Positions 9,731 through 34,000 of a DNA stretch of 64,000 nucleotides are shown in pieces (positions within the stretch are counted from its first letter, which is position 1; every line of letters starts with the position of its first letter). The stretch is from assembly GCA_031213475.1 (NCBI GenBank), contig JARUPZ010000007.1, positions 5,079,586 through 5,143,585 on the forward strand. The letters run 5' to 3'. Under the pieces are notes generated by a model. That model ran no database searches and was not told the DNA's origin. It saw only the letters and a list, made by a program, of their open reading frames with translations. Source of the stretch: Nereocystis luetkeana (lineage: Eukaryota > Sar > Phaeophyceae > Laminariales > Laminariaceae). The translations under genes and the position numbers were made by a program.

Positions 9731-9790
9731 GACATGCCGTTTGGCCCCATTGACCCGCCGTCTTTGGACCTGCCCGGCTAGGGTCCTCGC

Positions 9791-10009
9791 ATGCCGTCTG
9801 TTGGCGTTGATATCTCCGGCGATCTACCGTCCGGTGCTATGGAGCTGACCAGGCCGGACGTGCCTGTTGAAGGCACGATCGTTTCTCTCGGGGCGGGACT
9901 GGCTGCGGGCGTGACTGGGGCGGGACTGGCTGCGGGCGTGACTGCGGCTGTCGGTGCTGACGCGGTCGGTCTTGGCTTGTCGGGAAGGAATGACGAGCCG
10001 GAAGGGGAG
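9791..10009 (+). CDS. Exon A0, leftmost and degraded A-type exon
   Basis: From ATG 9791: MPSVGVDISGDLPSGAMELT, then the hydrophobic block and SGRNDEPEGE, with donor GTACGTCC at 10010. The family resemblance continues upstream (VDMPFGPIDPPSLDLPG at about 9732-9781), but a TAG at 9779-9781 interrupts the frame and no acceptor equivalent to the CCCAG of later copies is seen. So either translation starts at 9791 or this is a decayed edge copy. It contains an internal 30-bp direct duplication (GLAAGVTGA twice) absent from all other A exons. Confidence 0.5.
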
Positions 10010-13000
10010 GTACGTCCGTTCTTGGTGTTTGATTGTTGTATCGGTTACAGAGGTAAAATTGTGAAGAATGTGTTGGCGATGGTAACTGTGAACACTTGTG
10101 CCTTTTGATGAAACCAAAAGACTCGTACGTACAACACCATTTTTCGACGATCTCTCAATAGGTTTTGTACGTACTGTTGTTGGCTTGTATGCCGTTTTTT
10201 TGTGGTCAAAATGTCCTCGTTGTTTCTTGCTCCAACACCGTTTCTGTTACTATCGTTTATAGGTTTTGTTGTTTATTAATTTGTTTTTCATTTTGTTTCA
10301 CACCATTTCTCTTGTTTCTGGAATTATCGACCATGCCAATTTCAGATCCCGGATGCGAATGTCTCGGTGCCCAAGATCAGCGAGTCGCTGCCTTTGGTGG
10401 GCCTCGCTGTTGCCTCGGTAGACGTGGATGCGTCTCTCTCGTCCGCCTCGGGTGACTCGCCTGGTGAGTGTTCATCGTTAGGCTTCGAGTGTTTTTTTCT
10501 CGCTTTGTATTGTTATGCGTCGCCTCTTGGGTATCGCGGAACACTTGTGATGCTCGTGTATGAAGCTTGTGCTGCATCTGCTTTACGGACGTGGGGCTGT
10601 ATTCTGTGCTTTAGACGTCTTTATCTGATGTAGTAAGGACTTTTACTCGCACTTCGTGGATCAATAGATTGATTGCATGCTTGCACGTCATGCGTGTCGG
10701 TCCTACAGAAATGACTGGCTAACTCATGACCGATACGACCGTTCGCCACGTGGTGTTCCCTAGGTATTGGCGATGGTCTCGATGCGTCGGTCGACGTGCC
10801 TTCTCTCTCCGTTCACATGCAACCTGGTTTCGTGGACGTGCCGTCTGCGGACTTGTCCGGCCAGCGTACTGACATGCCGTCTGTTGGCGTTGAGATCTGC
10901 GTCGATCTGCCGTTCGGTGATGTGGAGCTGACCGGGCCGGATGTGGATGCTGAGGGCGGGGGCGTTTCTCTCGGGACGGGGCTGGCTGCGGTCGTGACTG
11001 GAGCCGTCGGTGCTGCCGCGGTCGGTCTTTGCTTGTCGGGCAAGGGTGACAAGCCGGAAGGGGAGGTACGCCCGTTCTTGTGTGTGCTCGATTGTTGCAT
11101 CGGTTACAGAGGTAAAAGTGTGGAGAATGTGTTGGCAATGGTAACTGTAAACACTTGTGTCTTCTGATAAAACAAAAAGACTCGTACGTACAACACCATG
11201 TTTCGACGATCTCTCAATAGGTTTTGTTCGTACTGTTGTTGGCTTGTATGTCGTATATTTGTGGTCAAAATGTCCTCGTTGTTTCTTGCTCCAACACCGT
11301 TTCTGTTGATATCGTTTATAAGTTTCGTTGTTTAATTAGTGTTTTCATTTTGTTTCACACCATTTCTCTTGTTTCTGGAATTGTCGACTATGCCAATTTC
11401 AGGTCCCCAATGCGAATGTCTCGGTGCCCGAGATCAGCGAGCGGCTGCCTTTGTTGGGCCTCGCTGTTGCCTCGGTGGACGTGGACGCGTCTCTCTCGTC
11501 CGCCTCCGGTGACCTGCCTGGTGGGTGTTCATCGTTAGGCTTCGAGTGTTTTTTTCTCGCTTTGTATTGTTATGCGTCGCCTCTTGGGTATCGCGGAACG
11601 TTTGCCATGCTCGTGTATGAAACTTGTGCTGTATCTGCTATACGGACGTGGGGCTGTATTCTGTGCTCGCGCCTGGACATAGTTGATGATCGTGTATACT
11701 TTGTACTTGTGTATCTGCTTTAAATAACACGGACTTTTACTCGCACTTCGTGTATCGATCGATTGATTGATTGCGTGCTTGCACCTCATGCGTGTCGGTC
11801 CTACAGAAATGACTGGCTAACACATGGCCGATACGACCGCTTGCCACGTGGTGTTCCCCAGGTATTGGCGATGGTCTCGATGCGTCGGTCGACGTGCCTT
11901 CTCTCTGCATTCACATGCAATCTGGTGTCGTGGACGTGCCGTCTGCGGACTTGTCCGGCCAGCGTACTGACATGCCGTCTGTTGGCGTTGAGATCTGCGT
12001 CGATCTGCCGTTCGGTGATGTCGAGCTGACCGGGCCGGACGTGGATGCTGAGGGCGGGGGCGTTTCTCTCGGGACGGGGCTGGCTGCGGGCGTGACTGGA
12101 GCTGTCGGTGCTGCCGCGGTCGGTCTTTGCTTGTCGGGCAAGGGTGACAAGCCGGAAGGGGAGGTACGCCCGTTCTTGTGTGTGATCGATTGTCGTATCG
12201 GTTACAGAGGTAAAAGTGTGGAGAATGTGTTGGCAATGGTAACTGTAAACACCTGTGTCTTTTGATAAAACAAAGAGACTCGTACGTACAACACCATGTT
12301 TCGACGATCTTTCAATAGGTTTTGTTCGTACTGTTGTTGGCTTGTATGTCGTATATTTGTGGTCGAAATGTCCTCGTTGTTTCTTGCTCCAACACTGTTT
12401 CTGTTACTATCGTTTATAGGTTTTGTTGTTTGATTAGTTTTTTCATTTTGTTTCACACCATTTCTCTTGTTTCTGGAATTGTCGACTATGCCAATTTCAG
12501 ATCCCGGATGCGAATGTCTCGGTGCCCAAGATCAGCGAGTCGCTGCCTTTGGTGGGCCTCGCTGTTGCCTCGGTAGACGTGGATACGTCTCTCTCGTCCG
12601 CCTCCGGTGACCTGCCTGGTGGGTGTTCATCGTTAGGCTTCGAGTGTTTATTCTCGATTTGTATTGTTATGCGTCGCCTCTTGGGTATCGCGGAACGTTT
12701 GCCATGCTCGTGTATGAAACTTGTGCTGTATCTGCTTTACGGACGTGGGGCTGTATTCGGTGCTTTAGACGTCTTAATCTGATATAACACGGACTTTTAC
12801 TCGCACTTCGTGGATCAATAGATTGATTGAATGCGTGCTTGCACCTCATGCGTGTCGGTCCTACTGAACTGACTGGCTAACTCATGACCGATACGACCGT
12901 TCGCCACGTGGTGTTCCCCAGGTATTGGCGATGGTCTCGATGCGTCGGTCGACATGCCTTCTCTCTGCGTTCACATGCAATCTAGGGTCGTGGACGTGCC

Positions 13001-16000
13001 GTCTGCGGACTTGTCCGGCCAGCGTACTGACATGCCGTCTGTTGGCGTTGAGATCTGCGTCGATCTGCCGGTCGGTGATGTGGAGCTGACCGGCCTGGAC
13101 GTGGGTGCTGAGGGCGGGGGCGTTTCTCTCGGGACGGGGCTGGCTGCTGGCGTTATTGGAGCTGTCGGTGCTGCCGCGGTCGGTCTTTGCTTGTCGGGCA
13201 AGGGTGACAAGCCGGAAGGGGAGGTACGCCCGTTCTTGTCTGTGATCGATTGTTGCATCGGTTACAGAGGTAAAAGTGTGAAGAATGTGTTGGCAATGGT
13301 AACTGTAAACACTTGTGTCTTTTGATAAAACAAAGAGACTCGTACGTACAACACCATGTTTCGACGATCTCTCAATAGGTTTTGTTCGTACTGTTGTTGG
13401 CTTGTATGTCGTATATTTGTGGTCAAAATTTCCTCGTTGTTTCTTGCTCCAACACCGTTTCTGTTTCTATCGTTTATAGGTCTTGTAGTTTAATAATTTG
13501 TTTTTCATTTTGTTTCACACCATTTCTCTTGTTTCTGGAATTGTCGACTATGCCAATTTCAGATACCGGATGCGAATGTCTCGGTGCCCAAGATCAGCGA
13601 GTCGCTGCCTTTGGTGGGCCTCGTTGTTGCTTCGGTGGACGTGGATGCGTCTCTCTCGTCCGCCTTAGGTGACCTGCCTGGTGGGTGTTCATCGTTAGGC
13701 TTCGAGTGTTTTTTTCTCGCTTTGTATTGTTATGCGTCGCCTCTTGGGTATCGCGGAACACTTGTGATGCTCGTGTATGAAACTTGTGCTGTATCTGCTA
13801 TACGGACGTGGGGCTGTATTCTGTGCTCGCGCCTGGACATAGTTGATGATCGTGTATACTTTGTACTTGTGTATCTGCTTTAAATAACACGGACTTTTAC
13901 TCGCACTTCGTGTATCGATCGATTGATTGATTGCGTGCTTGCACCTCATGCGTGTCGGTCCTACAGAAATGACTGGCTAACACATGGCCGATACGACCGC
14001 TTGCCACGTGGTGTTCCCCAGGTATTGGCGATGGTCTCGATGCGTCGGTCGACGTGCCTTCTCTCTGCATTCACATGCAATCTGGTGTCGTGGACGTGCC
14101 GTCTGCGGACTTGTCCGGCCAGCGTACTGACATGCCGTCTGTTGGCGTTGAGATCTGCGTCGATCTGCCGTTCGGTGATGTCGAGCTGACCGGGCCGGAC
14201 GTGGATGCTGAGGGCGGGGGCGTTTCTCTCGGGACGGGGCTGGCTGCGGGCGTGACTGGAGCTGTCGGTGCTGCCGCGGTCGGTCTTTGCTTGTCGGGCA
14301 AGGGTGACAAGCCGGAAGGGGAGGTACGCCCGTTCTTGTGTGTGATCGATTGTTGTATCGGTTACAGAGGTAAAAGTGTGGAGAATGTGTTGGCAATGGT
14401 AACTGTAAACACCTGTGTCTTTTGATAAAATAAAGAGACTCGTACGTACAACACCATGTTTCGACGATCTCTCAATAGGTTTTGTTCGTACTGTTGTTGG
14501 CTTGTATGTCGTATATTTGTGGTCGAAATGTCCTCGTTGTTTCTTGCTCCAACACTGTTTCTGTTACTATCGTTTATAGGTTTTGTTGTTTAATAATTTG
14601 TTTTTCATTTTGTTTCACACCATTTCTCTTGTTTCTGGAATTGTCGACTATGCCAATTTCAGATACCGGATGCGAATGTCTCGGTGCCCAAGATCAGCGA
14701 GTCGCTGCCTTTGGTGGGCCTCGTTGTTGCTTCGGTGGACGTGGATGCGTCTCTCTCGTCCGCCTTAGGTGACCTGCCTGGTGGGTGTTCATCGTTAGGC
14801 TTCGAGTGTTTTTTTCTCGCTTTGTATTGTTATGCGTCGCCTCTTGGGTATCGCGGAACACTTGTGATGCTCGTGTATGAAACTTGTGCTGTATCTGCTA
14901 TACGGACGTGGGGCTGTATTCGGTGCTTTAGACGTCTTAATCTGATATAGTACGGACTTTTACTCGCACTTCGTGGATAAATTAATTGATTGATTGCGTG
15001 CTTGCACGCAATGCGTGTCGGTCCTACAGAAATGACTGGCTAACTCATGTCCGATACGACCGTTCGCCACGTGGTGTTCCCCAGGTATTGGCGATGGTCT
15101 CGATGCGTCGGTCGACGTGCCTTCTCTCTCCGTTCACATGCAATCTGGTGTCGTGGACGTGCCGTCTGCGGACTTGTCCGGCCAGCGTACTGACATGCCG
15201 TCGGTTGGCGTTGAGATCTGCGTCGATCTGCCGGTCGGTGATGTGGAGCTGACCGGGACGGACGTGGGTGCTGAGGGCGGGGGCGTTTCTCTCGGGACGG
15301 GGCTGGCTGCGGGCGTGACTGGAGCTGTCGGTGCTGCCGCGGTCGGTCTTTGCTTGTCGGGCAAGGGTGACAAGCCGGAAGGGGAGGTACGCCCGTTCTT
15401 GTGTGTGATCGATTGTCGTATCGGTTATAGAGGTAAAAGTGTGGAGAACGTGTTGGCAATGGTAACTGTAAACACTTGTGTCTTCTGATAAAACAAAGAG
15501 ACTCGTACGTACAACACCATGTTTCGACGATCTCTCAATAGGTTTTGTTCGTACTGTTGTTGGCTTGTATGTCGTATATTTGTGGTCGAAATTTCCTCGT
15601 TGTTTCTTGCTCCAACACCGTTTCTGTTACTATCGTTTATAAGTTTCGTTGTTTAATTAAAAAAAAACATTTTGTTTCACACCATTTCTCTTGTTTCTGG
15701 AATTGTCGACCATGCCAATTTCAGACCCCGGATGCGAATGTCTCGGAGCCCGAGATCAGCGAGTCGCTGCCTTTGGTGGGCCTCGCGGTTGACTCAGTGG
15801 ACGTGGATGCGTCTCTCTCGTCCGCCTCCGGTGACCTGCCTGGTGAGTGTTCATCGTTAGGCTTCGAGTGTTTTTTTCTCGATTTGAATTGTTATGCGTC
15901 GCCTCTTGGGTATCGCGGAACACTTGTCATGCTCGTGTATGAAACTTGGGCTGTATCTGTTATACGGACGTGGGGCTGTATTCGGTGCTCGCGCCTGGAC

Positions 16001-19000
16001 ATAGTTGATGATCGTGTATACTTTGTACTTGTGTGTCTGCTATATATAACACGGACTTTTACTCGCACTTCGTGTATCGATCGATTGATTGATTGCGTGC
16101 TTGCACCTCATGCGTGTCGGTCCTACAGAAATGACTGGCTAACACATGACCGATACGGTTGCTTGCCACGTGGTGTTCCCCAGGTATTGGCGATGGTCTC
16201 GATGCGTCGGTCGACATGCCTTCTCTCTCCGTTCACATGCAATCTGGTGTCGTGGACGTGCCGTCTGCGGACTTGTCCGGCCAGCGTACTGACATGCCGT
16301 CTGTTGGCGTTGAGATCTGCGTCGATCTGCCGGTCGGTGATGTGGAGCTGACCGGGCCGGACGTGGGTGCTGAGGGCGGGGGCGTTTCTCTCGGGACGGG
16401 GCTGGCTGCGGGCGTGACTGGAGCCGTCGGTGCTGCCGCGGTCGGTCTTTGCTTGTCGGGCAAGGGTGACAAGCCGGAAGGGGAGGTACGCCCGTTCTTG
16501 TGTGTGATCGATTGTCGTATCGGTTACAGAGGTAAAAGTGTGGAGAATGTGTTGGCAATGGTAACTGTAAACACTTGTGTCTTTTGATAAAACAAAAAGA
16601 CTCGTACGTACAACACCATGTTTCGACGATCTCTCAATAGGTTTTGTTCGTACTGTTGTTGGCTTGTATGTCGTATATTTGTGGTCGAAATGTCCTCGTT
16701 GTTTCTTGCTCCAACACCGTTTCTGTTACTATCGTTTATACGTTTCGTTGTTTAATTAAAAAAAAACATTTTGTTTCACACCATTTCTCTTGTTTCTGGA
16801 ATTGTCGGCCATGCCAATTTCAGACCCCGGATGCGAATGTCTCGGTGCCCGAGATCAGCGAGTCGCTGCCTTTGGTGGGCCTCGCTGTTGCCTCGATGGA
16901 CGTGGATGCGTCTCTCTCGTCCGCCTCCGGTGACCTGCCTGGTGGGTGTTCATCGTTAGGCTTCTAGTGTTTTTTTCTCGCTTTGTATTGTTATGCGTCG
17001 CCTCTTGGGTATCGCGGAACGTTTGCCATGCTCGTGTATGAAACTTGGGCTGTATCTGCTATACGGACGTGGGGCTGAATTCTGTGCTCGCGCCTGGACA
17101 TAGTTGTTGATCGTGTATACTTTGTATATCTGTATCGGCTATAAATAACACGGACTTTTACTCGCACTTCGTGTATCGATCGATTGATTGATTGCGTGCT
17201 TGCACCTCATGCGTGTCGGTCCTACAGAAATGACTGGCTAACACATGACCGATACGACCGCTTGCCACGTGGTGTTCCCCAGGTATTGGCGATGGTCTCG
17301 ATGCGTCGGTCGACATGCCTTCTCTCTGCGTTCACATGCAATCTGGTGTCGTGGACGTGCCGTCTGCGGACTTGTCCGGCCAGCGTACTGACATGCCGTC
17401 TGTTGGCGTTGAGATCTGCGTCGATCTGCCGTTCGGTGATATGGAGCTGACCGGGCCGGACGTGGGTGCTGAGGGCGGGGGCGTTTCTCTCGGGACGGGG
17501 CTGGCTGCGGGCGTGACTGGAGCTGTCGGTGCTGCCGCGGTCGGTCTTTGCTTGTCGGGCAAGGGTGACAAGCCGGAAGGGGAGGTACGCCCGTTCTTGT
17601 GTGTGATCGATTGTCGTATCGGTTACAGAGGTAAAAGTGTGGAGAATGTGTTGGCGATGGTAACTGTGAACACTTGTGCCTTTTGATGAAACCAAAAGAC
17701 TCGTACGTACAACACCATTTTTCGACGATCTCTCAATAGGTTTTGTACGTACTGTTGTTGGCTTGTATGCCGTTTTTTTGTGGTCAAAATGTCCTCGTTG
17801 TTTCTTGCTCCAACACCGTTTCTGTTACTATCGTTTATAGGTTTTGTTGTTTATTAATTTGTTTTTCATTTTGTTTCACACCATTTCTCTTGTTTCTGGA
17901 ATTATCGACCATGCCAATTTCAGATCCCGGATGCGAATGTCTCGGTGCCCAAGATCAGCGAGTCGCTGCCTTTGGTGGGCCTCGCTGTTGCCTCGGTAGA
18001 CGTGGATGCGTCTCTCTCGTCCGCCTCGGGTGACTCGCCTGGTGAGTGTTCATCGTTAGGCTTCGAGTGTTTTTTTCTCGCTTTGTATTGTTATGCGTCG
18101 CCTCTTGGGTATCGCGGAACACTTGTGATGCTCGTGTATGAAGCTTGTGCTGCATCTGCTTTACGGACGTGGGGCTGTATTCTGTGCTTTAGACGTCTTT
18201 ATCTGATGTAGTAAGGACTTTTACTCGCACTTCGTGGATCAATAGATTGATTGCATGCTTGCACGTCATGCGTGTCGGTCCTACAGAAATGACTGGCTAA
18301 CTCATGACCGATACGACCGTTCGCCACGTGGTGTTCCCTAGGTATTGGCGATGGTCTCGATGCGTCGGTCGACGTGCCTTCTCTCTCCGTTCACATGCAA
18401 CCTGGTTTCGTGGACGTGCCGTCTGCGGACTTGTCCGGCCAGCGTACTGACATGCCGTCTGTTGGCGTTGAGATCTGCGTCGATCTGCCGTTCGGTGATG
18501 TGGAGCTGACCGGGCCGGATGTGGATGCTGAGGGCGGGGGCGTTTCTCTCGGGACGGGGCTGGCTGCGGTCGTGACTGGAGCCGTCGGTGCTGCCGCGGT
18601 CGGTCTTTGCTTGTCGGGCAAGGGTGACAAGCCGGAAGGGGAGGTACGCCCGTTCTTGTGTGTGCTCGATTGTTGCATCGGTTACAGAGGTAAAAGTGTG
18701 GAGAATGTGTTGGCAATGGTAACTGTAAACACTTGTGTCTTCTGATAAAACAAAAAGACTCGTACGTACAACACCATGTTTCGACGATCTCTCAATAGGT
18801 TTTGTTCGTACTGTTGTTGGCTTGTATGTCGTATATTTGTGGTCAAAATGTCCTCGTTGTTTCTTGCTCCAACACCGTTTCTGTTGATATCGTTTATAAG
18901 TTTCGTTGTTTAATTAGTGTTTTCATTTTGTTTCACACCATTTCTCTTGTTTCTGGAATTGTCGACTATGCCAATTTCAGGTCCCCAATGCGAATGTCTC

Positions 19001-22000
19001 GGTGCCCGAGATCAGCGAGCGGCTGCCTTTGTTGGGCCTCGCTGTTGCCTCGGTGGACGTGGACGCGTCTCTCTCGTCCGCCTCCGGTGACCTGCCTGGT
19101 GGGTGTTCATCGTTAGGCTTCGAGTGTTTTTTTCTCGCTTTGTATTGTTATGCGTCGCCTCTTGGGTATCGCGGAACGTTTGCCATGCTCGTGTATGAAA
19201 CTTGTGCTGTATCTGCTATACGGACGTGGGGCTGTATTCTGTGCTCGCGCCTGGACATAGTTGATGATCGTGTATACTTTGTACTTGTGTATCTGCTTTA
19301 AATAACACGGACTTTTACTCGCACTTCGTGTATCGATCGATTGATTGATTGCGTGCTTGCACCTCATGCGTGTCGGTCCTACAGAAATGACTGGCTAACA
19401 CATGGCCGATACGACCGCTTGCCACGTGGTGTTCCCCAGGTATTGGCGATGGTCTCGATGCGTCGGTCGACATGCCTTCTCTCTCCGTTCACATGCAATC
19501 TGGTGTCGTGGACGTGCCGTCTGCGGACTTGTCCGGCCAGCGTACTGACATGCCGTCTGTTGGCGTTGAGATCTGCGTCGATCTGCCGTTCGGTGATGTC
19601 GAGCTGACCGGGCCGGACGTGGGTGCTGAGGGCGGGGGCGTTTCTCTCGGGACGGGGCTGGCTGCGGGCGTGACTGGAGCTGTCGGTGCTGCCGCGGTCG
19701 GTCTTTGCTTGTCGGGCAAGGGTGACAAGCCGGAAGGGGAGGTACGCCCGTTCTTGTGTGTGATCGATTGTTGTATCGGTTACAGAGGTAAAAGTGTGGA
19801 GAATGTGTTGGCAATGGTAACTGTAAACACCTGTGTCTTTTGATAAAACAAAGAGACTCGTACGTACAACACCATGTTTCGACGATCTCTCAATAGGTTT
19901 TGTTCGTACTGTTGTTGGCTTGTATGTCGTATATTTGTGGTCGAAATGTCCTCGTTGTTTCTTGCTCCAACACTGTTTCTGTTACTATCGTTTATAGGTT
20001 TTGTTGTTTGATTAGTTTTTTCATTTTGTTTCACACCATTTCTCTTGTTTCTGGAATTGTCGACTATGCCAATTTCAGATCCCGGATGCGAATGTCTCGG
20101 TGCCCAAGATCAGCGAGTCGCTGCCTTTGGTGGGCCTCGCTGTTGCCTCGGTAGACGTGGATACGTCTCTCTCGTCCGCCTCCGGTGACCTGCCTGGTGG
20201 GTGTTCATCGTTAGGCTTCGAGTGTTTATTCTCGATTTGTATTGTTATGCGTCGCCTCTTGGGTATCGCGGAACGTTTGCCATGCTCGTGTATGAAACTT
20301 GTGCTGTATCTGCTTTACGGACGTGGGGCTGTATTCGGTGCTTTAGACGTCTTAATCTGATATAACACGGACTTTTACTCGCACTTCGTGGATCAATAGA
20401 TTGATTGAATGCGTGCTTGCACCTCATGCGTGTCGGTCCTACTGAACTGACTGGCTAACTCATGACCGATACGACCGTTCGCCACGTGGTGTTCCCCAGG
20501 TATTGGCGATGGTCTCGATGCGTCGGTCGACATGCCTTCTCTCTGCGTTCACATGCAATCTAGGGTCGTGGACGTGCCGTCTGCGGACTTGTCCGGCCAG
20601 CGTACTGACATGCCGTCTGTTGGCGTTGAGATCTGCGTCGATCTGCCGGTCGGTGATGTGGAGCTGACCGGCCTGGACGTGGGTGCTGAGGGCGGGGGCG
20701 TTTCTCTCGGGACGGGGCTGGCTGCTGGCGTTATTGGAGCTGTCGGTGCTGCCGCGGTCGGTCTTTGCTTGTCGGGCAAGGGTGACAAGCCGGAAGGGGA
20801 GGTACGCCCGTTCTTGTCTGTGATCGATTGTTGCATCGGTTACAGAGGTAAAAGTGTGAAGAATGTGTTGGCAATGGTAACTGTAAACACTTGTGTCTTT
20901 TGATAAAACAAAGAGACTCGTACGTACAACACCATGTTTCGACGATCTCTCAATAGGTTTTGTTCGTACTGTTGTTGGCTTGTATGTCGTATATTTGTGG
21001 TCAAAATTTCCTCGTTGTTTCTTGCTCCAACACCGTTTCTGTTTCTATCGTTTATAGGTCTTGTTGTTTAATAATTTGTTTTTCATTTTGTTTCACACCA
21101 TTTCTCTTGTTTCTGGAATTGTCGACTATGCCAATTTCAGATCCCGGATGCGAATGTCTCGGTGCCCAAGATCAGCGAGTCGCTGCCTTTGGTGGGCCTC
21201 GTTGTTGCTTCGGTGGACGTGGATGCGTCTCTCTCGTCCGCCTTAGGTGACCTGCCTGGTGGGTGTTCATCGTTAGGCTTCGAGTGTTTTTTTCTCGCTT
21301 TGTATTGTTATGCGTCGCCTCTTGGGTATCGCGGAACACTTGTGATGCTCGTGTATGAAACTTGTGCTGTATCTGCTATACGGACGTGGGGCTGTATTCT
21401 GTGCTCGCGCCTGGACATAGTTGATGATCGTGTATACTTTGTACTTGTGTATCTGCTTTAAATAACACGGACTTTTACTCGCACTTCGTGTATCGATCGA
21501 TTGATTGATTGCGTGCTTGCACCTCATGCGTGTCGGTCCTACAGAAATGACTGGCTAACACATGGCCGATACGACCGCTTGCCACGTGGTGTTCCCCAGG
21601 TATTGGCGATGGTCTCGATGCGTCGGTCGACGTGCCTTCTCTCTGCATTCACATGCAATCTGGTGTCGTGGACGTGCCGTCTGCGGACTTGTCCGGCCAG
21701 CGTACTGACATGCCGTCTGTTGGCGTTGAGATCTGCGTCGATCTGCCGTTCGGTGATGTCGAGCTGACCGGGCCGGACGTGGATGCTGAGGGCGGGGGCG
21801 TTTCTCTCGGGACGGGGCTGGCTGCGGGCGTGACTGGAGCTGTCGGTGCTGCCGCGGTCGGTCTTTGCTTGTCGGGCAAGGGTGACAAGCCGGAAGGGGA
21901 GGTACGCCCGTTCTTGTGTGTGATCGATTGTTGTATCGGTTACAGAGGTAAAAGTGTGGAGAATGTGTTGGCAATGGTAACTGTAAACACCTGTGTCTTT

Positions 22001-25000
22001 TGATAAAACAAAGAGACTCGTACGTACAACACCATGTTTCGACGATCTCTCAATAGGTTTTGTTCGTACTGTTGTTGGCTTGTATGTCGTATATTTGTGG
22101 TCGAAATGTCCTCGTTGTTTCTTGCTCCAACACTGTTTCTGTTACTATCGTTTATAGGTTTCGTTGTTTGATTAGTTTTTTCATTTTGTTTCACACCATT
22201 TCTCTTGTTTCTGGAATTGTCGACTATGCCAATTTCAGATCCCGGATGCGAATGTCTCGGTGCCCAAGATCAGCGAGTCGCTGCCTTTGGTGGGCCTCGC
22301 TGTTGCCTCGGTAGACGTGGATACGTCTCTCTCGTCCGTCTCCGGTGACCTGCCTGGTGGGTGTTCATCGTTAGGCTTCGAGTGTTTATTCTCGATTTGT
22401 ATTGTTATGCGTCGCCTCTTGGGTATCGCGGAACGTTTGCCATGCTCGTGTATGAAACTTGTGCTGTATCTGCTTTACGGACGTGGGGCTGTATTCGGTG
22501 CTTTAGACGTCTTAATCTGATATAACACGGACTTTTACTCGCACTTCGTGGATCAATAGATTGATTGATTGCGTGCTTGCACCTCATGCGTGTCGGTCCT
22601 ACTGAACTGACTGGCTAACTCATGACCGATACGACCGTTCGCCACGTGGTGTTCCCCAGGTATTGGCGATGGTCTCGATGCGTCGGTCGACATGCCTTCT
22701 CTCTGCGTTCACATGCAATCTAGGGTCGTGGACGTGCCGTCTGCGGACTTGTCCGGCCAGCGTACTGACATGCCGTCTGTTGGCGTTGAGATCTGCGTCG
22801 ATCTGCCGGTCGGTGATGTGGAGCTGACCGGCCTGGACGTGGGTGCTGAGGGCGGGGGCGTTTCTCTCGGGACGGGGCTGGCTGCTGGCGTTATTGGAGC
22901 TGTCGGTGCTGCCGCGGTCGGTCTTTGCTTGTCGGGCAAGGGTGACAAGCCGGAAGGGGAGGTACGCCCGTTCTTGTCTGTGATCGATTGTTGCATCGGT
23001 TACAGAGGTAAAAGTGTGAAGAATGTGTTGGCAATGGTAACTGTAAACACTTGTGTCTTTTGATAAAACAAAGAGACTCGTACGTACAACACCATGTTTC
23101 GACGATCTCTCAATAGGTTTTGTTCGTACTGTTGTTGGCTTGTATGTCGTATATTTGTGGTCAAAATTTCCTCGTTGTTTCTTGCTCCAACACCGTTTCT
23201 GTTTCTATCGTTTATAGGTCTTGTAGTTTAATAATTTGTTTTTCATTTTGTTTCACACCATTTCTCTTGTTTCTGGAATTGTCGACTATGCCAATTTCAG
23301 ATACCGGATGCGAATGTCTCGGTGCCCAAGATCAGCGAGTCGCTGCCTTTGGTGGGCCTCGTTGTTGCTTCGGTGGACGTGGATGCGTCTCTCTCGTCCG
23401 CCTTAGGTGACCTGCCTGGTGGGTGTTCATCGTTAGGCTTCGAGTGTTTTTTTCTCGCTTTGTATTGTTATGCGTCGCCTCTTGGGTATCGCGGAACACT
23501 TGTGATGCTCGTGTATGAAACTTGTGCTGTATCTGCTATACGGACGTGGGGCTGTATTCGGTGCTTTAGACGTCTTAATCTGATATAGTACGGACTTTTA
23601 CTCGCACTTCGTGGATAAATTAATTGATTGATTGCGTGCTTGCACGCAATGCGTGTCGGTCCTACAGAAATGACTGGCTAACTCATGTCCGATACGACCG
23701 TTCGCCACGTGGTGTTCCCCAGGTATTGGCGATGGTCTCGATGCGTCGGTCGACGTGCCTTCTCTCTCCGTTCACATGCAATCTGGTGTCGTGGACGTGC
23801 CGTCTGCGGACTTGTCCGGCCAGCGTACTGACATGCCGTCGGTTGGCGTTGAGATCTGCGTCGATCTGCCGGTCGGTGATGTGGAGCTGACCGGGACGGA
23901 CGTGGGTGCTGAGGGCGGGGGCGTTTCTCTCGGGACGGGGCTGGCTGCGGGCGTGACTGGAGCTGTCGGTGCTGCCGCGGTCGGTCTTTGCTTGTCGGGC
24001 AAGGGTGACAAGCCGGAAGGGGAGGTACGCCCGTTCTTGTGTGTGATCGATTGTCGTATCGGTTATAGAGGTAAAAGTGTGGAGAACGTGTTGGCAATGG
24101 TAACTGTAAACACTTGTGTCTTCTGATAAAACAAAGAGACTCGTACGTACAACACCATGTTTCGACGATCTCTCAATAGGTTTTGTTCGTACTGTTGTTG
24201 GCTTGTATGTCGTATATTTGTGGTCGAAATTTCCTCGTTGTTTCTTGCTCCAACACCGTTTCTGTTACTATCGTTTATAAGTTTCGTTGTTTAATTAAAA
24301 AAAAACATTTTGTTTCACACCATTTCTCTTGTTTCTGGAATTGTCGACCATGCCAATTTCAGACCCCGGATGCGAATGTCTCGGAGCCCGAGATCAGCGA
24401 GTCGCTGCCTTTGGTGGGCCTCGCGGTTGACTCAGTGGACGTGGATGCGTCTCTCTCGTCCGCCTCCGGTGACCTGCCTGGTGAGTGTTCATCGTTAGGC
24501 TTCGAGTGTTTTTTTCTCGATTTGAATTGTTATGCGTCGCCTCTTGGGTATCGCGGAACACTTGTCATGCTCGTGTATGAAACTTGGGCTGTATCTGTTA
24601 TACGGACGTGGGGCTGTATTCGGTGCTCGCGCCTGGACATAGTTGATGATCGTGTATACTTTGTACTTGTGTGTCTGCTATATATAACACGGACTTTTAC
24701 TCGCACTTCGTGTATCGATCGATTGATTGATTGCGTGCTTGCACCTCATGCGTGTCGGTCCTACAGAAATGACTGGCTAACACATGACCGATACGGTTGC
24801 TTGCCACGTGGTGTTCCCCAGGTATTGGCGATGGTCTCGATGCGTCGGTCGACATGCCTTCTCTCTCCGTTCACATGCAATCTGGTGTCGTGGACGTGCC
24901 GTCTGCGGACTTGTCCGGCCAGCGTACTGACATGCCGTCTGTTGGCGTTGAGATCTGCGTCGATCTGCCGGTCGGTGATGTGGAGCTGACCGGGCCGGAC

Positions 25001-28000
25001 GTGGGTGCTGAGGGCGGGGGCGTTTCTCTCGGGACGGGGCTGGCTGCGGGCGTGACTGGAGCTGTCGGTGCTGCCGCGGTCGGTCTTTGCTTGTCGGGCA
25101 AGGGTGACAAGCCGGAAGGGGAGGTACGCCCGTTCTTGTGTGTGATCGATTGTCGTATCGGTTACAGAGGTAAAAGTGTGGAGAATGTGTTGGCAATGGT
25201 AACTGTAAACACTTGTGTCTTTTGATAAAACAAAAAGACTCGTACGTACAACACCATGTTTCGACGATCTCTCAATAGGTTTTGTTCGTACTGTTGTTGG
25301 CTTGTATGTCGTATATTTGTGGTCGAAATGTCCTCGTTGTTTCTTGCTCCAACACCGTTTCTGTTACTATCGTTTATACGTTTCGTTGTTTAATTAAAAA
25401 AAAACATTTTGTTTCACACCATTTCTCTTGTTTCTGGAATTGTCGGCCATGCCAATTTCAGACCCCGGATGCGAATGTCTCGGTGCCCGAGATCAGCGAG
25501 TCGCTGCCTTTGGTGGGCCTCGCTGTTGCCTCGATGGACGTGGATGCGTCTCTCTCGTCCGCCTCCGGTGACCTGCCTGGTGGGTGTTCATCGTTAGGCT
25601 TCTAGTGTTTTTTTCTCGCTTTGTATTGTTATGCGTCGCCTCTTGGGTATCGCGGAACGTTTGCCATGCTCGTGTATGAAACTTGGGCTGTATCTGCTAT
25701 ACGGACGTGGGGCTGAATTCTGTGCTCGCGCCTGGACATAGTTGTTGATCGTGTATACTTTGTATATCTGTATCTGCTATAAATAACACGGACTTTTACT
25801 CGCACTTCGTGTATCGATCGATTGATTGATTGCGTGCTTGCACCTCATGCGTGTCGGTCCTACAGAAATGACTGGCTAACACATGACCGATACGACCGCT
25901 TGCCACGTGGTGTTCCCCAGGTATTGGCGATGGTCTCGATGCGTCGGTCGACATGCCTTCTCTCTGCGTTCACATGCAATCTGGTGTCGTGGACGTGCCG
26001 TCTGCGGACTTGTCCGGCCAGCGTACTGACATGCCGTCTGTTGGCGTTGAGATCTGCGTCGATCTGCCGTTCGGTGATATGGAGCTGACCGGGCCGGACG
26101 TGGGTGCTGAGGGCGGGGGCGTTTCTCTCGGGACGGGGCTGGCTGCGGGCGTGACTGGAGCTGTCGGTGCTGCCGCGGTCGGTCTTTGCTTGTCGGGCAA
26201 GGGTGACAAGCCGGAAGGGGAGGTACGCCCGTTCTTGTGTGTGATCGATTGTCGTATCGGTTACAGAGGTAAAAGTGTGGAGAATGTGTTGGCGATGGTA
26301 ACTGTGAACACTTGTGCCTTTTGATGAAACCAAAAGACTCGTACGTACAACACCATGTTTCGACGATCTCTCAATAGGTTTTGTACGTACTGTTGTTGGC
26401 TTGTATGCCGTTTTTTTGTGGTCAAAATGTCCTCGTTGTTTCTTGCTCCAACACCGTTTCTGTTACTATCGTTTATAGGTTTTGTTGTTTATTAATTTGT
26501 TTTTCATTTTGTTTCACACCATTTCTCTTGTTTCTGGAATTATCGACCATGCCAATTTCAGATCCCGGATGCGAATGTCTCGGTGCCCAAGATCAGCGAG
26601 TCGCTGCCTTTGGTGGGCCTCGCTGTTGCCTCGGTAGACGTGGATGCGTCTCTCTCGTCCGCCTCGGGTGACTCGCCTGGTGAGTGTTCATCGTTAGGCT
26701 TCGAGTGTTTTTTTCTCGCTTTGTATTGTTATGCGTCGCCTCTTGGGTATCGCGGAACACTTGTGATGCTCGTGTATGAAGCTTGTGCTGCATCTGCTTT
26801 ACGGACGTGGGGCTGTATTCTGTGCTTTAGACGTCTTTATCTGATGTAGTAAGGACTTTTACTCGCACTTCGTGGATCAATAGATTGATTGCATGCTTGC
26901 ACGTCATGCGTGTCGGTCCTACAGAAATGACTGGCTAACTCATGACCGATACGACCGTTCGCCACGTGGTGTTCCCTAGGTATTGGCGATGGTCTCGATG
27001 CGTCGGTCGACGTGCCTTCTCTCTCCGTTCACATGCAACCTGGTTTCGTGGACGTGCCGTCTGCGGACTTGTCCGGCCAGCGTACTGACATGCCGTCTGT
27101 TGGCGTTGAGATCTGCGTCGATCTGCCGTTCGGTGATGTGGAGCTGACCGGGCCGGATGTGGATGCTGAGGGCGGGGGCGTTTCTCTCGGGACGGGGCTG
27201 GCTGCGGTCGTGACTGGAGCCGTCGGTGCTGCCGCGGTCGGTCTTTGCTTGTCGGGCAAGGGTGACAAGCCGGAAGGGGAGGTACGCCCGTTCTTGTGTG
27301 TGCTCGATTGTTGCATCGGTTACAGAGGTAAAAGTGTGGAGAATGTGTTGGCAATGGTAACTGTAAACACTTGTGTCTTCTGATAAAACAAAAAGACTCG
27401 TACGTACAACACCATGTTTCGACGATCTCTCAATAGGTTTTGTTCGTACTGTTGTTGGCTTGTATGTCGTATATTTGTGGTCAAAATGTCCTCGTTGTTT
27501 CTTGCTCCAACACCGTTTCTGTTGATATCGTTTATAAGTTTCGTTGTTTAATTAGTGTTTTCATTTTGTTTCACACCATTTCTCTTGTTTCTGGAATTGT
27601 CGACTATCCCAATTTCAGGTCCCCAATGCGAATGTCTCGGTGCCCGAGATCAGCGAGCGGCTGCCTTTGTTGGGCCTCGCTGTTGCCTCGGTGGACGTGG
27701 ACGCGTCTCTCTCGTCCGCCTCCGGTGACCTGCCTGGTGGGTGTTCATCGTTAGGCTTCGAGTGTTTTTTTCTCGCTTTGTATTGTTATGCGTCGCCTCT
27801 TGGGTATCGCGGAACGTTTGCCATGCTCGTGTATGAAACTTGTGCTGTATCTGCTATACGGACGTGGGGCTGTATTCTGTGCTCGCGCCTGGACATAGTT
27901 GATGATCGTGTATACTTTGTACTTGTGTATCTGCTTTAAATAACACGGACTTTTACTCGCACTTCGTGTATCGATCGATTGATTGATTGCGTGCTTGCAC

Positions 28001-31000
28001 CTCATGCGTGTCGGTCCTACAGAAATGACTGGCTAACACATGGCCGATACGACCGCTTGCCACGTGGTGTTCCCCAGGTATTGGCGATGGTCTCGATGCG
28101 TCGGTCGACATGCCTTCTCTCTCCGTTCACATGCAATCTGGTGTCGTGGACGTGCCGTCTGCGGACTTGTCCGGCCAGCGTACTGACATGCCGTCTGTTG
28201 GCGTTGAGATCTGCGTCGATCTGCCGTTCGGTGATGTCGAGCTGACCGGGCCGGACGTGGGTGCTGAGGGCGGGGGCGTTTCTCTCGGGACGGGGCTGGC
28301 TGCGGGCGTGACTGGAGCTGTCGGTGCTGCCGCGGTCGGTCTTTGCTTGTCGGGCAAGGGTGACAAGCCGGAAGGGGAGGTACGCCCGTTCTTGTGTGTG
28401 ATCGATTGTTGTATCGGTTACAGAGGTAAAAGTGTGGAGAATGTGTTGGCAATGGTAACTGTAAACACCTGTGTCTTTTGATAAAACAAAGAGACTCGTA
28501 CGTACAACACCATGTTTCGACGATCTCTCAATAGGTTTTGTTCGTACTGTTGTTGGCTTGTATGTCGTATATTTGTGGTCGAAATGTCCTCGTTGTTTCT
28601 TGCTCCAACACTGTTTCTGTTACTATCGTTTATAGGTTTTGTTGTTTGATTAGTTTTTTCATTTTGTTTCACACCATTTCTCTTGTTTCTGGAATTGTCG
28701 ACTATGCCAATTTCAGATCCCGGATGCGAATGTCTCGGTGCCCAAGATCAGCGAGTCGCTGCCTTTGGTGGGCCTCGCTGTTGCCTCGGTAGACGTGGAT
28801 ACGTCTCTCTCGTCCGCCTCCGGTGACCTGCCTGGTGGGTGTTCATCGTTAGGCTTCGAGTGTTTATTCTCGATTTGTATTGTTATGCGTCGCCTCTTGG
28901 GTATCGCGGAACGTTTGCCATGCTCGTGTATGAAACTTGTGCTGTATCTGCTTTACGGACGTGGGGCTGTATTCGGTGCTTTAGACGTCTTAATCTGATA
29001 TAACACGGACTTTTACTCGCACTTCGTGGATCAATAGATTGATTGAATGCGTGCTTGCACCTCATGCGTGTCGGTCCTACTGAACTGACTGGCTAACTCA
29101 TGACCGATACGACCGTTCGCCACGTGGTGTTCCCCAGGTATTGGCGATGGTCTCGATGCGTCGGTCGACATGCCTTCTCTCTGCGTTCACATGCAATCTA
29201 GGGTCGTGGACGTGCCGTCTGCGGACTTGTCCGGCCAGCGTACTGACATGCCGTCTGTTGGCGTTGAGATCTGCGTCGATCTGCCGGTCGGTGATGTGGA
29301 GCTGACCGGCCTGGACGTGGGTGCTGAGGGCGGGGGCGTTTCTCTCGGGACGGGGCTGGCTGCTGGCGTTATTGGAGCTGTCGGTGCTGCCGCGGTCGGT
29401 CTTTGCTTGTCGGGCAAGGGTGACAAGCCGGAAGGGGAGGTACGCCCGTTCTTGTCTGTGATCGATTGTTGCATCGGTTACAGAGGTAAAAGTGTGAAGA
29501 ATGTGTTGGCAATGGTAACTGTAAACACTTGTGTCTTTTGATAAAACAAAGAGACTCGTACGTACAACACCATGTTTCGACGATCTCTCAATAGGTTTTG
29601 TTCGTACTGTTGTTGGCTTGTATGTCGTATATTTGTGGTCAAAATTTCCTCGTTGTTTCTTGCTCCAACACCGTTTCTGTTTCTATCGTTTATAGGTCTT
29701 GTTGTTTAATAATTTGTTTTTCATTTTGTTTCACACCATTTCTCTTGTTTCTGGAATTGTCGACTATGCCAATTTCAGATCCCGGATGCGAATGTCTCGG
29801 TGCCCAAGATCAGCGAGTCGCTGCCTTTGGTGGGCCTCGTTGTTGCTTCGGTGGACGTGGATGCGTCTCTCTCGTCCGCCTTAGGTGACCTGCCTGGTGG
29901 GTGTTCATCGTTAGGCTTCGAGTGTTTTTTTCTCGCTTTGTATTGTTATGCGTCGCCTCTTGGGTATCGCGGAACACTTGTGATGCTCGTGTATGAAACT
30001 TGTGCTGTATCTGCTATACGGACGTGGGGCTGTATTCGGTGCTTTAGACGTCTTAATCTGATATAGTACGGACTTTTACTCGCACTTCGTGGATAAATTA
30101 ATTGATTGATTGCGTGCTTGCACGCAATGCGTGTCGGTCCTACAGAAATGACTGGCTAACTCATGTCCGATACGACCGTTCGCCACGTGGTGTTCCCCAG
30201 GTATTGGCGATGGTCTCGATGCGTCGGTCGACGTGCCTTCTCTCTCCGTTCACATGCAATCTGGTGTCGTGGACGTGCCGTCTGCGGACTTGTCCGGCCA
30301 GCGTACTGACATGCCGTCGGTTGGCGTTGAGATCTGCGTCGATCTGCCGGTCGGTGATGTGGAGCTGACCGGGACGGACGTGGGTGCTGAGGGCGGGGGC
30401 GTTTCTCTCGGGACGGGGCTGGCTGCGGGCGTGACTGGAGCTGTCGGTGCTGCCGCGGTCGGTCTTTGCTTGTCGGGCAAGGGTGACAAGCCGGAAGGGG
30501 AGGTACGTCCGTTCTTGTCTGTGATCGATTGTTGTATCGGTTATAGAGGTAAAAGTGTGGAGAACGTGTTGGCAATGGTAACTGTAAACACTTGTGTCTT
30601 CTGATAAAACAAAGAGACTCGTACGTACAACACCATGTTTCGACGATCTCTCAATAGGTTTTGTTCGTACTGTTGTTGGCTTGTATGTCGTATATTTGTG
30701 GTCGAAATGTCCTCGTTGTTTCTTGCTCCAACACCGTTTCTGTTACTATCGTTTATACGTTTCGTTGTTTAATTAAAAAAAAACATTTTGTTTCACACCA
30801 TTTCTCTTGTTTCTGGAATTGTCGGCCATGCCAATTTCAGACCCCGGATGCGAATGTCTCGGTGCCCGAGATCAGCGAGTCGCTGCCTTTGGTGGGCCTC
30901 GCTGTTGCCTCGATGGACGTGGATGCGTCTCTCTCGTCCGCCTCCGGTGACCTGCCTGGTGGGTGTTCATCGTTAGGCTTCTAGTGTTTTTTTCTCGCTT

Positions 31001-34000
31001 TGTATTGTTATGCGTCGCCTCTTGGGTATCGCGGAACGTTTGCCATGCTCGTGTATGAAACTTGGGCTGTATCTGCTATACGGACGTGGGGCTGAATTCT
31101 GTGCTCGCGCCTGGACATAGTTGTTGATCGTGTATACTTTGTATATCTGTATCTGCTATAAATAACACGGACTTTTACTCGCACTTCGTGTATCGATCGA
31201 TTGATTGATTGCGTGCTTGCACCTCATGCGTGTCGGTCCTACAGAAATGACTGGCTAACACATGACCGATACGACCGCTTGCCACGTGGTGTTCCCCAGG
31301 TATTGGCGATGGTCTCGATGCGTCGGTCGACATGCCTTCTCTCTGCGTTCACATGCAATCTGGTGTCGTGGACGTGCCGTCTGCGGACTTGTCCGGCCAG
31401 CGTACTGACATGCCGTCTGTTGGCGTTGAGATCTGCGTCGATCTGCCGTTCGGTGATATGGAGCTGACCGGGCCGGACGTGGGTGCTGAGGGCGGGGGCG
31501 TTTCTCTCGGGACGGGGCTGGCTGCGGGCGTGACTGGAGCTGTCGGTGCTGCCGCGGTCGGTCTTTGCTTGTCGGGCAAGGGTGACAAGCCGGAAGGGGA
31601 GGTACGCCCGTTCTTGTGTGTGATCGATTGTTGTATCGGTTACAGAGGTAAAAGTGTGGAGAATGTGTTGGCAATGGTAACTGTAAACACCTGTGTCTTT
31701 TGATAAAACAAAGAGACTCGTACGTACAACACCATGTTTCGACGATCTCTCAATAGGTTTTGTTCGTACTGTTGTTGGCGTGTATATCGTTTTTTTGTGG
31801 TCGAAATTCCTTGTTGTTTCTTGCTCCAACACTGTGTCAGTCAGCATCGTTGGGAGGCCTTGTTATTTTTATTTTTTTTGTACTTTTGTTTCACACCATT
31901 TCTCTTGTTTCTGGAATCGTCGACTATGCCATTTTCAGATCCCGTATGCCAGTGTGTCGGTGCCCAAGATCATCGGGTCGCTGCCTCAGGTGTCTGGGGA
32001 CGAATCAGTGCCTTCTGTAGGCGGCAGCTTGGATGTGGGCGTCGCTGTTGCCTCGGTAGACGTGAACGCGTCTCTCCCGTCCGCCTCCGGTAACCTGTCT
32101 GGTGAGTGCAAATCGTTAGGTGTTGAGTGTTTTTTTCTCGCTTTGTATTGTTGTGCGTCGCCTGTTGGGTATCACGGCGCGTTTGTGATGCTCCTGTACG
32201 AATCTTGTGTTATACCTGGTATCTGCTTTACGGACGCGGGCCTGTACTCGGTGCTCGCTCCTAGATATATTTGATGATCGTGTATACCTGTACTTCTGTA
32301 TCTGCTACGAGGTATAAAATACGCGGCCTTGTACTCGCACTTCGTGTATCGATCGATTGATTGATTGCGTGTTTGCACTTCGTGTGTATCGACCCTACAG
32401 AAGTGACTAGCTGGCACATGACCGATGCGACCGCTTGCCACGTGGTGTTCCCCAGGTGGTGGTCGTGGGCTCGATGCGTCGGTCGACATGCCTTATGTCT
32501 CTGGGGACATGCCGTCTGGATCCGTTGACCTGCCGTCTGTGGACCCGTCCGCGAAGGGATCTCTCATGCCGTCTGTTGGCGGTGAGATCTGCAGCGAGCT
32601 GGCGCCCAGTGCTGTGGATCTGACTGGGCCGGACTCGGGAGTTGTGGTCGGGGGCGTTTCTCTTGGGTCGGGACTGGCTGCGGGCGTGACTGCGGCTGTC
32701 GGTGCAGCCGCGGTCGGTCTTTGCTTGTCGGGCAAAGATAACGAGCCAGAAGGGGAGGTGCGTCCGTTCTTGCGTATGATTGTTTGTTGCATCGGTTTCA
32801 GAGGTAAACGTTTGGAGAATGTGTTGGCAATGGTGACTGTAAGCACTTGTGTCTCTTGAAAGACTAAAATGACTCGTACGTAAAACACAATTGTGCGACG
32901 ATATCTCAATAGGTTTGGTACGTACTGTTGTTGGCTTGTATATCGTTTCTTTGTGGTCGAAATTTCCTCGTTGATTTTTGCTCCGACACCGTTTCAGTCT
33001 TAATCTGTTTTAAGCCTTGTCGTTGTTATTTTTTCATTGCATATTTGTTTATACCATTTTTCTTGTTTCTGGAATTGTCGACTATGCCTATTTCAGATCC
33101 CGGAGGCTAGCGCTTCTGTGCCCGAGATGAGCGGTTCGCTGCCTGAGGTGTCTGGGGACGTTTCAGTGCCTTCTGCAGACGGCGGCTTGGATGTGGGCGT
33201 CGCTGTTCCCTCAGTAGACTTGAACGCGTCTCTCCCGTCCGCCTCCGGTGGCCTGTCTGGCGAGTGCAAATCGTTAGGTTTTGAGCGTTTTTTTCTCGGT
33301 TTGTTTTGTTGTGCGTCTCCTATTGAGTATCGCGGAGCGTTTGTGATGATCGTGTATGAAACTTGTGCTGTATCTGCTTTACGGACGCGGGCCTGTACTC
33401 TGTGCTCGCAGCGGGACATATTTGATGATCGTGTATACTTTGTACTTCTGTATCTGCTTAAAAGCACGCGGGCTTGTACTCGCGCTTCTTGTGTCGATCG
33501 ATTGATTGATTGCGTGCTTGCTTGCACCTCGTGTGTATCGATTTAGCGGAAGTGACTGGCTAACACATAACCGATACGACCGAACCGCTTGCCACGTGGT
33601 GTTCCCCAGGTGTTGGGTATGGCCTCGATGCGTCGGTCGACATGCCTTGTGTCTCCGTTGACATGCAATCTGGTTTCGTTGGCCTGCTGTTTGTGGGCCC
33701 GTCCGGGAAGGACTATCGCAAACGGTCTGTTAGCGGTGAGATCTGCGGCGATCTGCCATCCGGTGCTGTGGAGCTCACTGGACCGGACGTGAGTGTTGAG
33801 GGCGGCGGCGTTTCTCTCGGGGCGGGACTGGCTGCGGGCGTGACTGGAGCTGTCGGTGCCGCCGCGGTCGGTCTTGGATTGCCGGGCAGGGATAACGAGC
33901 CGGAAGGGGAGGTGCGTCCGTTCTTGTGTGTGATTGATTGTTGTATCGGTTTCAGAGGTAAATCTTCGGGGAATGTGTCGGCAATGGTGACTGTAAATAC

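What the first reader, a model, noticed from the sequence alone, without database searches (positions are those of the whole stretch)
10346..31601. Giant gene expanded by a frame-neutral two-exon cassette
Seen: 20 tandem 1.06-1.10 kb units, each with exon B (118 bp, phase 0/1) and exon A (302 bp, phase 1/0). Neither exon alone is a multiple of 3, but the pair is exactly 420 nt. Only the pair, not a single exon, can be duplicated, lost or skipped without a frameshift. Inference: the locus is an evolvable length-variable protein, like other giant repeat proteins, but with the unit spread over two exons and two introns. I know of no described family with this repeat.
Basis: partly seen in the sequence, partly recalled or inferred. 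Interest (0 to 1): 0.9.

Follow-up and report, generated by a model that had tools for sequence, protein, structure and literature searches.

The report
Brown-algal giant repeat-protein gene
A seaweed-type gene carries 20 near-identical copies of a two-exon block that together would encode a giant acidic repeat protein; the protein family appears undescribed, but growth of a gene by copying an exon pair is already known from human apolipoprotein(a) and spider silk.

Summary
Window 10346-31601 contains 20 tandem units (1057-1100 bp), each with exon B (118 nt) and exon A (302 nt). All 40 exons are stop-free in one frame and have AG/GT borders. B+A is exactly 420 nt (140 aa).

Relatives support coding. 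Ectocarpus, Laminaria and Pylaiella encode the same repeat, and a Laminaria digitata protein runs through the predicted B|A junction without a gap there. In five diverged unit pairs, exon indels are multiples of three; B-A intron indels never are.

The array forms a higher-order repeat, abcdefg|abcdcefg|abce'g', with chimeric units, which fits recent unequal homologous exchange.

Two claims fail or weaken. The architecture has precedents (LPA KIV-2, Argiope MaSp2). Selection on the amino acids is not detectable in these copies (omega 0.87, not distinguishable from 1).

What seems new is the family: AHNAK-like "VDMPSVD" strands, a Gly/Ala-rich hydrophobic segment in the A exons, and a basic KPKKGLFGGLF-like motif in exons C and D. 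In Ectocarpus the module adjoins TPRs, once also an MLKL-like domain and a kinase. I infer a membrane-associated scaffold whose length follows cassette number; two structure predictions gave no fold. Expression, the 5' start and length polymorphism are untested.

The parts
9725..10009 (+). A0: truncated A-like exon 5' of the array; in-frame TAG at 9779-9781, ATG at 9791, donor GT after 10009
10346..11065 (+). Unit 1 (type a): B 10346-10463, A 10764-11065
11403..12163 (+). Unit 2 (type b, A exon like d): B 11403-11520, A 11862-12163
12501..13223 (+). Unit 3 (type c): B 12501-12618, A 12922-13223
13563..14323 (+). Unit 4 (type d): B 13563-13680, A 14022-14323
14663..15386 (+). Unit 5 (type e): B 14663-14780, A 15085-15386
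15725..16485 (+). Unit 6 (type f): B 15725-15842, A 16184-16485
16824..17584 (+). Unit 7 (type g): B 16824-16941, A 17283-17584
17924..18643 (+). Unit 8 (type a): B 17924-18041, A 18342-18643
18981..19741 (+). Unit 9 (type b): B 18981-19098, A 19440-19741
20079..20801 (+). Unit 10 (type c): B 20079-20196, A 20500-20801
21141..21901 (+). Unit 11 (type d): B 21141-21258, A 21600-21901
22239..22961 (+). Unit 12 (type c, extra copy): B 22239-22356, A 22660-22961
23301..24024 (+). Unit 13 (type e): B 23301-23418, A 23723-24024
24363..25123 (+). Unit 14 (type f): B 24363-24480, A 24822-25123
25462..26222 (+). Unit 15 (type g): B 25462-25579, A 25921-26222
26562..27281 (+). Unit 16 (type a): B 26562-26679, A 26980-27281
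27619..28379 (+). Unit 17 (type b): B 27619-27736, A 28078-28379
28717..29439 (+). Unit 18 (type c): B 28717-28834, A 29138-29439
29779..30502 (+). Unit 19 (e', chimera d/e/f; resembles f at the end of the intron after A): B 29779-29896, A 30201-30502
30841..31601 (+). Unit 20 (type g'): B 30841-30958, A 31300-31601
31939..32757 (+). Diverged unit 21: B-long 31939-32101 (163 nt), A 32456-32757
33097..33911 (+). Diverged unit 22: B-long 33097-33259 (GC donor), A 33610-33911
34362..34580 (+). Exon C1 (219 nt, phase 0-0), encodes VKTPKKGLFGNFLSKK basic motif
35288..36072 (+). Unit 23: B-long 35288-35450, A 35792-36072 (21-nt in-frame deletion)
36344..36475 (+). Exon C2 remnant, interrupted by a MITE-like insert; probably skipped (inference)
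36476..36768 (.). MITE-like insert with terminal inverted repeats of about 110 bp (87%)
36980..37142 (+). B-long exon 24
37645..37955 (+). Exon D (311 nt), A-like start joined to LKRPKKSLIG basic motif; no strong hydrophobic segment
38442..38579 (+). Exon E (138 nt, phase 0-0); the frame could also run on to TGA 38616-38618
49955..50947 (+). Gene 2 first exon: Gln/Gly-rich ORF fused in frame with an A-type exon
51408..55615 (+). Gene 2 exons C1 51408-51626, Bl23 52332-52494, A23 52834-53114, Bl24 54022-54184, D 54688-54998, E 55478-55615; no cassette array

Best explanation
A nuclear gene of a brown alga encodes a giant acidic repeat protein, about 3600 residues (345 kDa) in my model. Its length is set by the number of tandem B+A cassettes. 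Shown: cassettes, phases, splice borders, higher-order repeat, relatives. Inferred: cassettes are gained and lost by unequal homologous exchange, which always changes the protein by whole 140-residue units. Inferred with less certainty: the protein is a membrane-associated scaffold. Each A exon would contribute a membrane-seeking Gly/Ala-rich segment between AHNAK-like acidic strands, and the basic KPKKGLFGGLF-like motif of the C and D exons would bind acidic lipid, so cassette number would tune reach or valency. Rough confidence: coding family and two-exon splicing 0.9; unequal exchange 0.85; array gene intact and translated 0.6; membrane scaffold 0.3 (lowered from 0.35 after the second structure prediction).
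For: Exact geometry and open frame in 20 of 20 units. Laminaria digitata protein P0003 aligns to spliced unit 22 over 149 columns at 57% identity; there is no gap at the B|A junction, the nearest being one residue four residues beyond it (whether Laminaria has an intron there was not seen). Further relatives from Ectocarpus, Laminaria and Pylaiella. In five diverged unit pairs the exon indels were 45, 45, 21 and 45 nt (0 of 4 out of frame; two distinct events), while 16 of 16 B-A intron indels were not multiples of three. Between the two 3' copies, 6 exons have no indel and 5 introns have 6 indels, none a multiple of three. Type string abcdefg|abcdcefg|abce'g' with 0-7 mismatches between same-type units, apart from unit 20 (35-37, in its 3' intron but for one), and mosaic units 2 and 19. 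Hydrophobic Gly/Ala segment of 1.82-2.09 in 20 of 20 array A exons; a like segment in 28 of 55 homologue hits, 12 of 13 named brown-algal ones and 0 of 8 named animal hits. Model pI 4.05.
Against: pN/pS is 0.77 among nine representative units, and the control frames give 0.61 and 0.93. The codon model on 13 A exons gives omega 0.87, not better than 1 (lnL -1233.90 against -1234.21). The stop-loss simulation is not decisive: single exons stay open by chance with P 0.32-0.74, the three A exons tested against unit 1 together about 0.08. A0 has an in-frame TAG and no clear first exon was found. In 3 of 25 full A exons (35792, 50646, 52834) the hydrophobic peak is only 1.46-1.54, and exon D has none. 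AlphaFold2 gave pLDDT 45.5 for a relative and 49.2 for exon A with 25 rows, no secondary structure reported. There are no RNA data.
Confidence: 0.62

Rival explanations
1. The array is a decaying or silent paralogue: its 5' exons were lost (A0 carries a TAG), and the cassettes expanded as a minisatellite-like repeat without being translated. Gene 2 would be the working copy.
For: In-frame TAG in A0, and no upstream stretch like gene 2's Gln-rich exon in the self-comparison (first 120 rows shown). Omega near 1. Exon B diverges as fast as the introns (6.3% against 6.2-8.0%).
Against: No stop or broken splice dinucleotide in 20 of 20 units. Exon A varies about three-fold less than the introns (2.3%). 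ATG 9791 leads in frame into the first cassette.
Confidence: 0.27
2. The array is a row of separate small genes, or retained-intron transcripts, rather than one giant gene.
For: Each unit has its own introns of similar length, and unspliced A of unit 20 lies in a 145-codon ORF.
Against: The spliced frame has no stop in any unit; A ends in phase 0 and B begins in phase 0. Ectocarpus P0009 and P0002 carry several repeats in one protein.
Confidence: 0.07
3. The identical higher-order blocks are partly an assembly artefact and the true number of cassettes differs.
For: Units 8-10 and 16-18 differ by 0-1 base each.
Against: The three blocks differ in composition (c duplicated in block 2, d and f missing in block 3), which a simple duplicated join would not give. 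There are no N in the window.
Confidence: 0.12

Closest known systems
LPA (apolipoprotein(a)) KIV-2 repeat
   Same: 5.6-kb tandem unit with two exons (160 and 182 bp) separated by introns; neither exon is a multiple of 3 but the pair is (342); copy number sets protein size (PMC6314250, passages)
   Different: Kringle domain of vertebrates; sequence relation not tested, none expected from recall; allele variation proven there, not here
Argiope MaSp2 spidroin genes
   Same: In some of these genes two exons plus two introns form the repeated core unit, with homogenised introns (PMC9779670, passages)
   Different: Silk protein; sequence relation not tested
Brown-algal ROCO and NB-TPR genes
   Same: Brown algae too; tandem in-phase repeat exons that shuffle; TPRs also adjoin our module in Ectocarpus (PMC11378527, passages)
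   Different: One LRR per 72-bp phase-2 exon; a different repeat
Tetrahymena 90-bp exon LRR genes
   Same: Long in-phase exon arrays attributed to unequal crossing over, possibly with retrotransposition (PMC6564038, passages)
   Different: Single exons of 90 bp, LRR
AHNAK / AHNAK2
   Same: Large proteins with short VDxPxVD-like strands; weak hits
   Different: No Gly/Ala segment in the AHNAK-named hits P0011, P0015, P0046, P0055, nor in the 4 other named animal hits; single-giant-exon coding of AHNAK is recalled, not tested

Membership tests
Brown-algal zipper-repeat family (unnamed; e.g. P0001-P0009, P0013, P0017-P0030) | A-type domain with Gly/Ala-rich hydrophobic segment flanked by PDVxVEGG and LSGK/D-KPxxE | tested here: met
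   Window A exons align with these proteins and carry the segment
Brown-algal zipper-repeat family (unnamed; e.g. P0001-P0009, P0013, P0017-P0030) | Basic K-x-PKK-[GS]-LFG-like motif in the neighbouring exon | tested here: met
   Exon C1 and, in a weaker form, D; relatives. Absent from the 20 array units themselves
AHNAK | Significant similarity to AHNAK repeats beyond composition | tested here: inconclusive
   A-exon profile best-domain 10.6 and 16.0 bits for AHNAK-named P0011 and P0015, 13.6-13.9 for P0012, P0014 and P0016, against at most 3.8 for 20 shuffles each and 3.6 for reversed sequences; DUF4097 is matched by P0011, P0015 and relative P0034; the motif is short and could converge
AHNAK | No regular Gly/Ala hydrophobic segments, as in the animal hits | tested here: not met
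   20 of 20 array A exons have one; 0 of 8 named animal hits
Tandem two-exon cassette genes (as LPA KIV-2) | Unit of two asymmetric exons whose sum is a multiple of 3, repeated in tandem with introns | tested here: met
Tandem two-exon cassette genes (as LPA KIV-2) | Copy number differs between alleles | not testable with these tools
   Only one haplotype; the search of the window's own genome did not complete
Immune-type receptors (MLKL_N-kinase-TPR of Ectocarpus P0013) | MLKL_N, kinase or TPR in the same gene | tested here: not met
   All 27 matches of P0013 in the window lie in its residues 577-829, outside kinase and TPRs; no such Pfam hit in 8 ORFs. Other ORFs of the window were not scanned with Pfam

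The most novel reading that the evidence does not exclude
An undescribed algal module family (AHNAK-like strands, Gly/Ala-rich segment, basic LFG motif) builds giant multi-membrane-anchor scaffolds. In Ectocarpus-like proteins the B-A-C repeat reads like a single phase 0-0 exon, whereas in this and other kelp-like sequences introns split it into B, A and C. Splitting an ancestral exon would then have created the asymmetric cassette that later expanded 20-fold. In Ectocarpus the same module serves as linker in an MLKL-like kinase-TPR protein, so the giant protein may be tied to membrane-based defence signalling. A like module in a protein labelled Ulvmu1 (Ulva) suggests a wider, older distribution.
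Probability: 0.18. Interest if true: 0.68.

Novelty: new member of a known kind. Interest (0 to 1): 0.42.

Why it matters
It adds a brown-algal case to the genes whose protein length is set by a multi-exon tandem unit, with a readable record of unit gain and loss. It also points to an unnamed protein module shared by brown algae (and apparently Ulva) that can be expressed and tested for membrane binding. A clear comparison of unsplit (Ectocarpus-like) and split (kelp-like) repeat exons would show whether introns entered before the expansion.

Tried and rejected
Membership in AHNAK was set aside as unproven and discordant in the hydrophobic segment. Structure predictions of relative P0002 with 10 rows (mean pLDDT 45.5) and of exon A with 25 rows (49.2) gave no confident fold, so no fold search was made. 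The PDB profile search gave one match at E 0.78, treated as chance. In viral contigs 61 stretches matched a pattern and none was confirmed. No Rfam family reached its gathering score and no tRNA was found. The look-alike P0010, whose 83% identical relative lies in Thiolinea disciformis, scores 26.6 bits against at most 2.0 for its 20 shuffles; convergence is not excluded. In one search the B query was cut wrongly (5497 bases); one search replaced it. Each of the three protein searches scored only the roughly 7990 candidates sharing most words. Papers holding both AHNAK and Ectocarpus: 0; AHNAK and brown alga: 1, unrelated. These and the listings are the whole basis for calling the family undescribed; most subscription papers and preprints were not covered.
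Full report
Observation. The array is real and exact. A scan with exons A and B of unit 1 recovered 20 B and 25 A copies in the window; 20 A copies pair with the 20 B copies at 10346-31601. Each B is 118 nt, each A 302 nt, with AG before and GT after. The joined frame has 2800 codons and no stop. Of 900 slides of the same exon geometry, only the stated one has all four splice dinucleotides in all 20 units. Units are 1057-1100 bp.

Surroundings. The array is followed by two diverged B-long+A units, a symmetric exon C (219 nt), a further B-long+A, an interrupted exon C2, B-long, D and E. C2 carries a 293-bp insert with inverted ends of about 110 bp; the same insert, 99.4% identical, sits in the second copy, so it probably predates that duplication. 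The 3' part recurs about 17 kb downstream. There the gene begins with a Gln/Gly-rich ORF fused in frame to one A exon and has no array. Upstream of the array, A0 carries an in-frame TAG at 9779; an ATG at 9791 leads in frame into the first cassette. Whether translation starts there is not known.

How the array grew. Whole-unit comparison sorts the units into types abcdefg|abcdcefg|abce'g' (my labels). Same-type units differ by 0-7 bases, except unit 20, which is like g but differs by 35-37 bases. Different types differ by 19 to 91. Unit 2 has the A exon of type d. Unit 19 begins like d, continues as e and resembles f at the end of the intron after A; unit 20's differences lie in the intron after A, all but one. 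This fits unequal exchange and conversion between homologous positions. Such exchange always moves whole 420-nt coding units, so the frame-neutral pair is a consequence and not a special device.

Is it coding? For: a Laminaria digitata protein (P0003, unnamed product in NCBI) aligns to the spliced B+A of unit 22 over 149 columns at 57% identity with 10 gapped columns. None lies at the junction; the nearest is one residue, four residues beyond it. This shows that B and A are contiguous in a kelp protein; whether an intron separates them in Laminaria DNA was not seen. Between diverged units, exon indels are 45, 45, 21 and 45 nt (two distinct events), while none of 16 B-A intron indels is a multiple of three (the same events recur in several pairs). 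Between the two 3' copies, six exons have no indel and five introns have six, none a multiple of three. Exon A varies less (2.3%) than the introns (6.2% and 8.0%), but exon B does not (6.3%). Against or neutral: pN/pS is 0.77 in frame, against 0.61 and 0.93 in the control frames. It is 0.74 for B and 0.76 for A taken apart, and 0.81 between the two 3' copies. For the diverged A exons 32456, 33610 and 50646 against unit 1 it is 0.86-0.93, no lower than in the other frames as a whole (0.74-1.09). The codon model gives omega 0.87 and does not reject 1. The open frame of three diverged A exons could arise by chance at about 0.08. So the family is coding, but amino-acid constraint on these copies is not demonstrated.

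What the protein is. The module has three parts: short acidic strands of the VDMPSVD type, a Gly/Ala-rich hydrophobic segment in A exons, and a basic KPKKGLFGGLF-like motif in C and D. The 19-residue hydropathy peak is 1.82-2.09 in 20 of 20 array A exons and at least 1.6 in 22 of 25 full A exons; the other three reach 1.46-1.54. The model protein has 3608 residues, 345 kDa, pI 4.05, and 29 stretches reaching 1.6, some of them in B exons; its first exon is uncertain. Three protein searches returned 8, 8 and 50 hits, 55 distinct proteins in all. The segment is present in 28 of 55 hits, in 12 of 13 hits named as brown algae (the 13th, P0021, starts inside it) and in 0 of 8 named animal hits. P0033, labelled Ulvmu1 (Ulva, by recall of the code), has segment and basic motif with a diacylglycerol-kinase accessory domain. 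In Ectocarpus the module adjoins TPRs (P0004, P0005, P0019; P0005 just above the cut-off), and in P0013 it lies between an MLKL_N plus kinase part and TPRs. None of these partners was found in the window ORFs scanned or by P0013 itself.

Exon history, by reading protein letters only. In six relatives (P0001, P0025-P0029) exon A seems to stand alone, with intron-like letters on both sides. In P0007, P0018, P0023, P0024 and P0034 B-like and A parts run on without interruption, in P0007 and P0018 through C as well. P0032 and P0006 were ambiguous and left out; NCBI gene models were not counted because they may be spliced. All eleven lack a printed organism. This suggests that a single exon was split by introns in one lineage, or that introns were lost in the other.

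Mechanism. I infer a membrane-associated scaffold whose number of anchors follows cassette number. The hydropathy, the basic motif and the partner domains of relatives point that way. No fold, localisation or expression result supports it, and both structure predictions were uninformative.

Comparison. LPA KIV-2 and Argiope MaSp2 work like this at the gene level; a sequence relation was not tested. Brown-algal ROCO genes show another in-phase repeat exon system in brown algae. For these and for Tetrahymena I read passages found by term, not whole papers. A brown alga nearer to kelps than to Ectocarpus is inferred: A exons 22 and 23 match Laminaria P0003 and P0008 at 58-65% and the Ectocarpus and Pylaiella proteins compared at 38-53%. 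P0042 (ENA, organism not shown) matches 173 of 175 residues of a window ORF, intron letters included.

Noticed in passing
34066-46412 and 51112-63639: A duplication at a spacing of about 17.0-17.3 kb; the 14 two-copy families listed are 84-99% identical. The second copy has no cassette array.
   Followed up: partly
36476-36768 and 53518-53810: MITE-like insert with 87% inverted ends of about 110 bp inside exon C2 of both gene copies.
   Followed up: partly
3354-6650: Minisatellite-like region of degenerate repeats (reported periods 64-179 bp, several near 117-133) upstream of the gene.
   Followed up: no
49955-50947: Gln-rich then Gly-rich ORF fused in frame to an A-type exon; could be the missing kind of first exon for the array gene.
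   Followed up: partly
33260: GC instead of GT donor after B-long exon 22.
   Followed up: no
33564-34169: Protein P0042 (ENA, contig 2782 bp, organism not shown) matches this window ORF at 173 of 175 residues, intron letters included: same or sister species.
   Followed up: partly
L001:3001-7170: Thiolinea disciformis encodes a relative (best segment 83%) of P0010, a protein with similar short strands and four Gly/Ala hydrophobic segments; distant homology or convergence is open.
   Followed up: partly
11801-12403 and similar, minus strand: Antisense ORFs of 200 codons recur across exon A in many units; probably a by-product of codon use.
   Followed up: no
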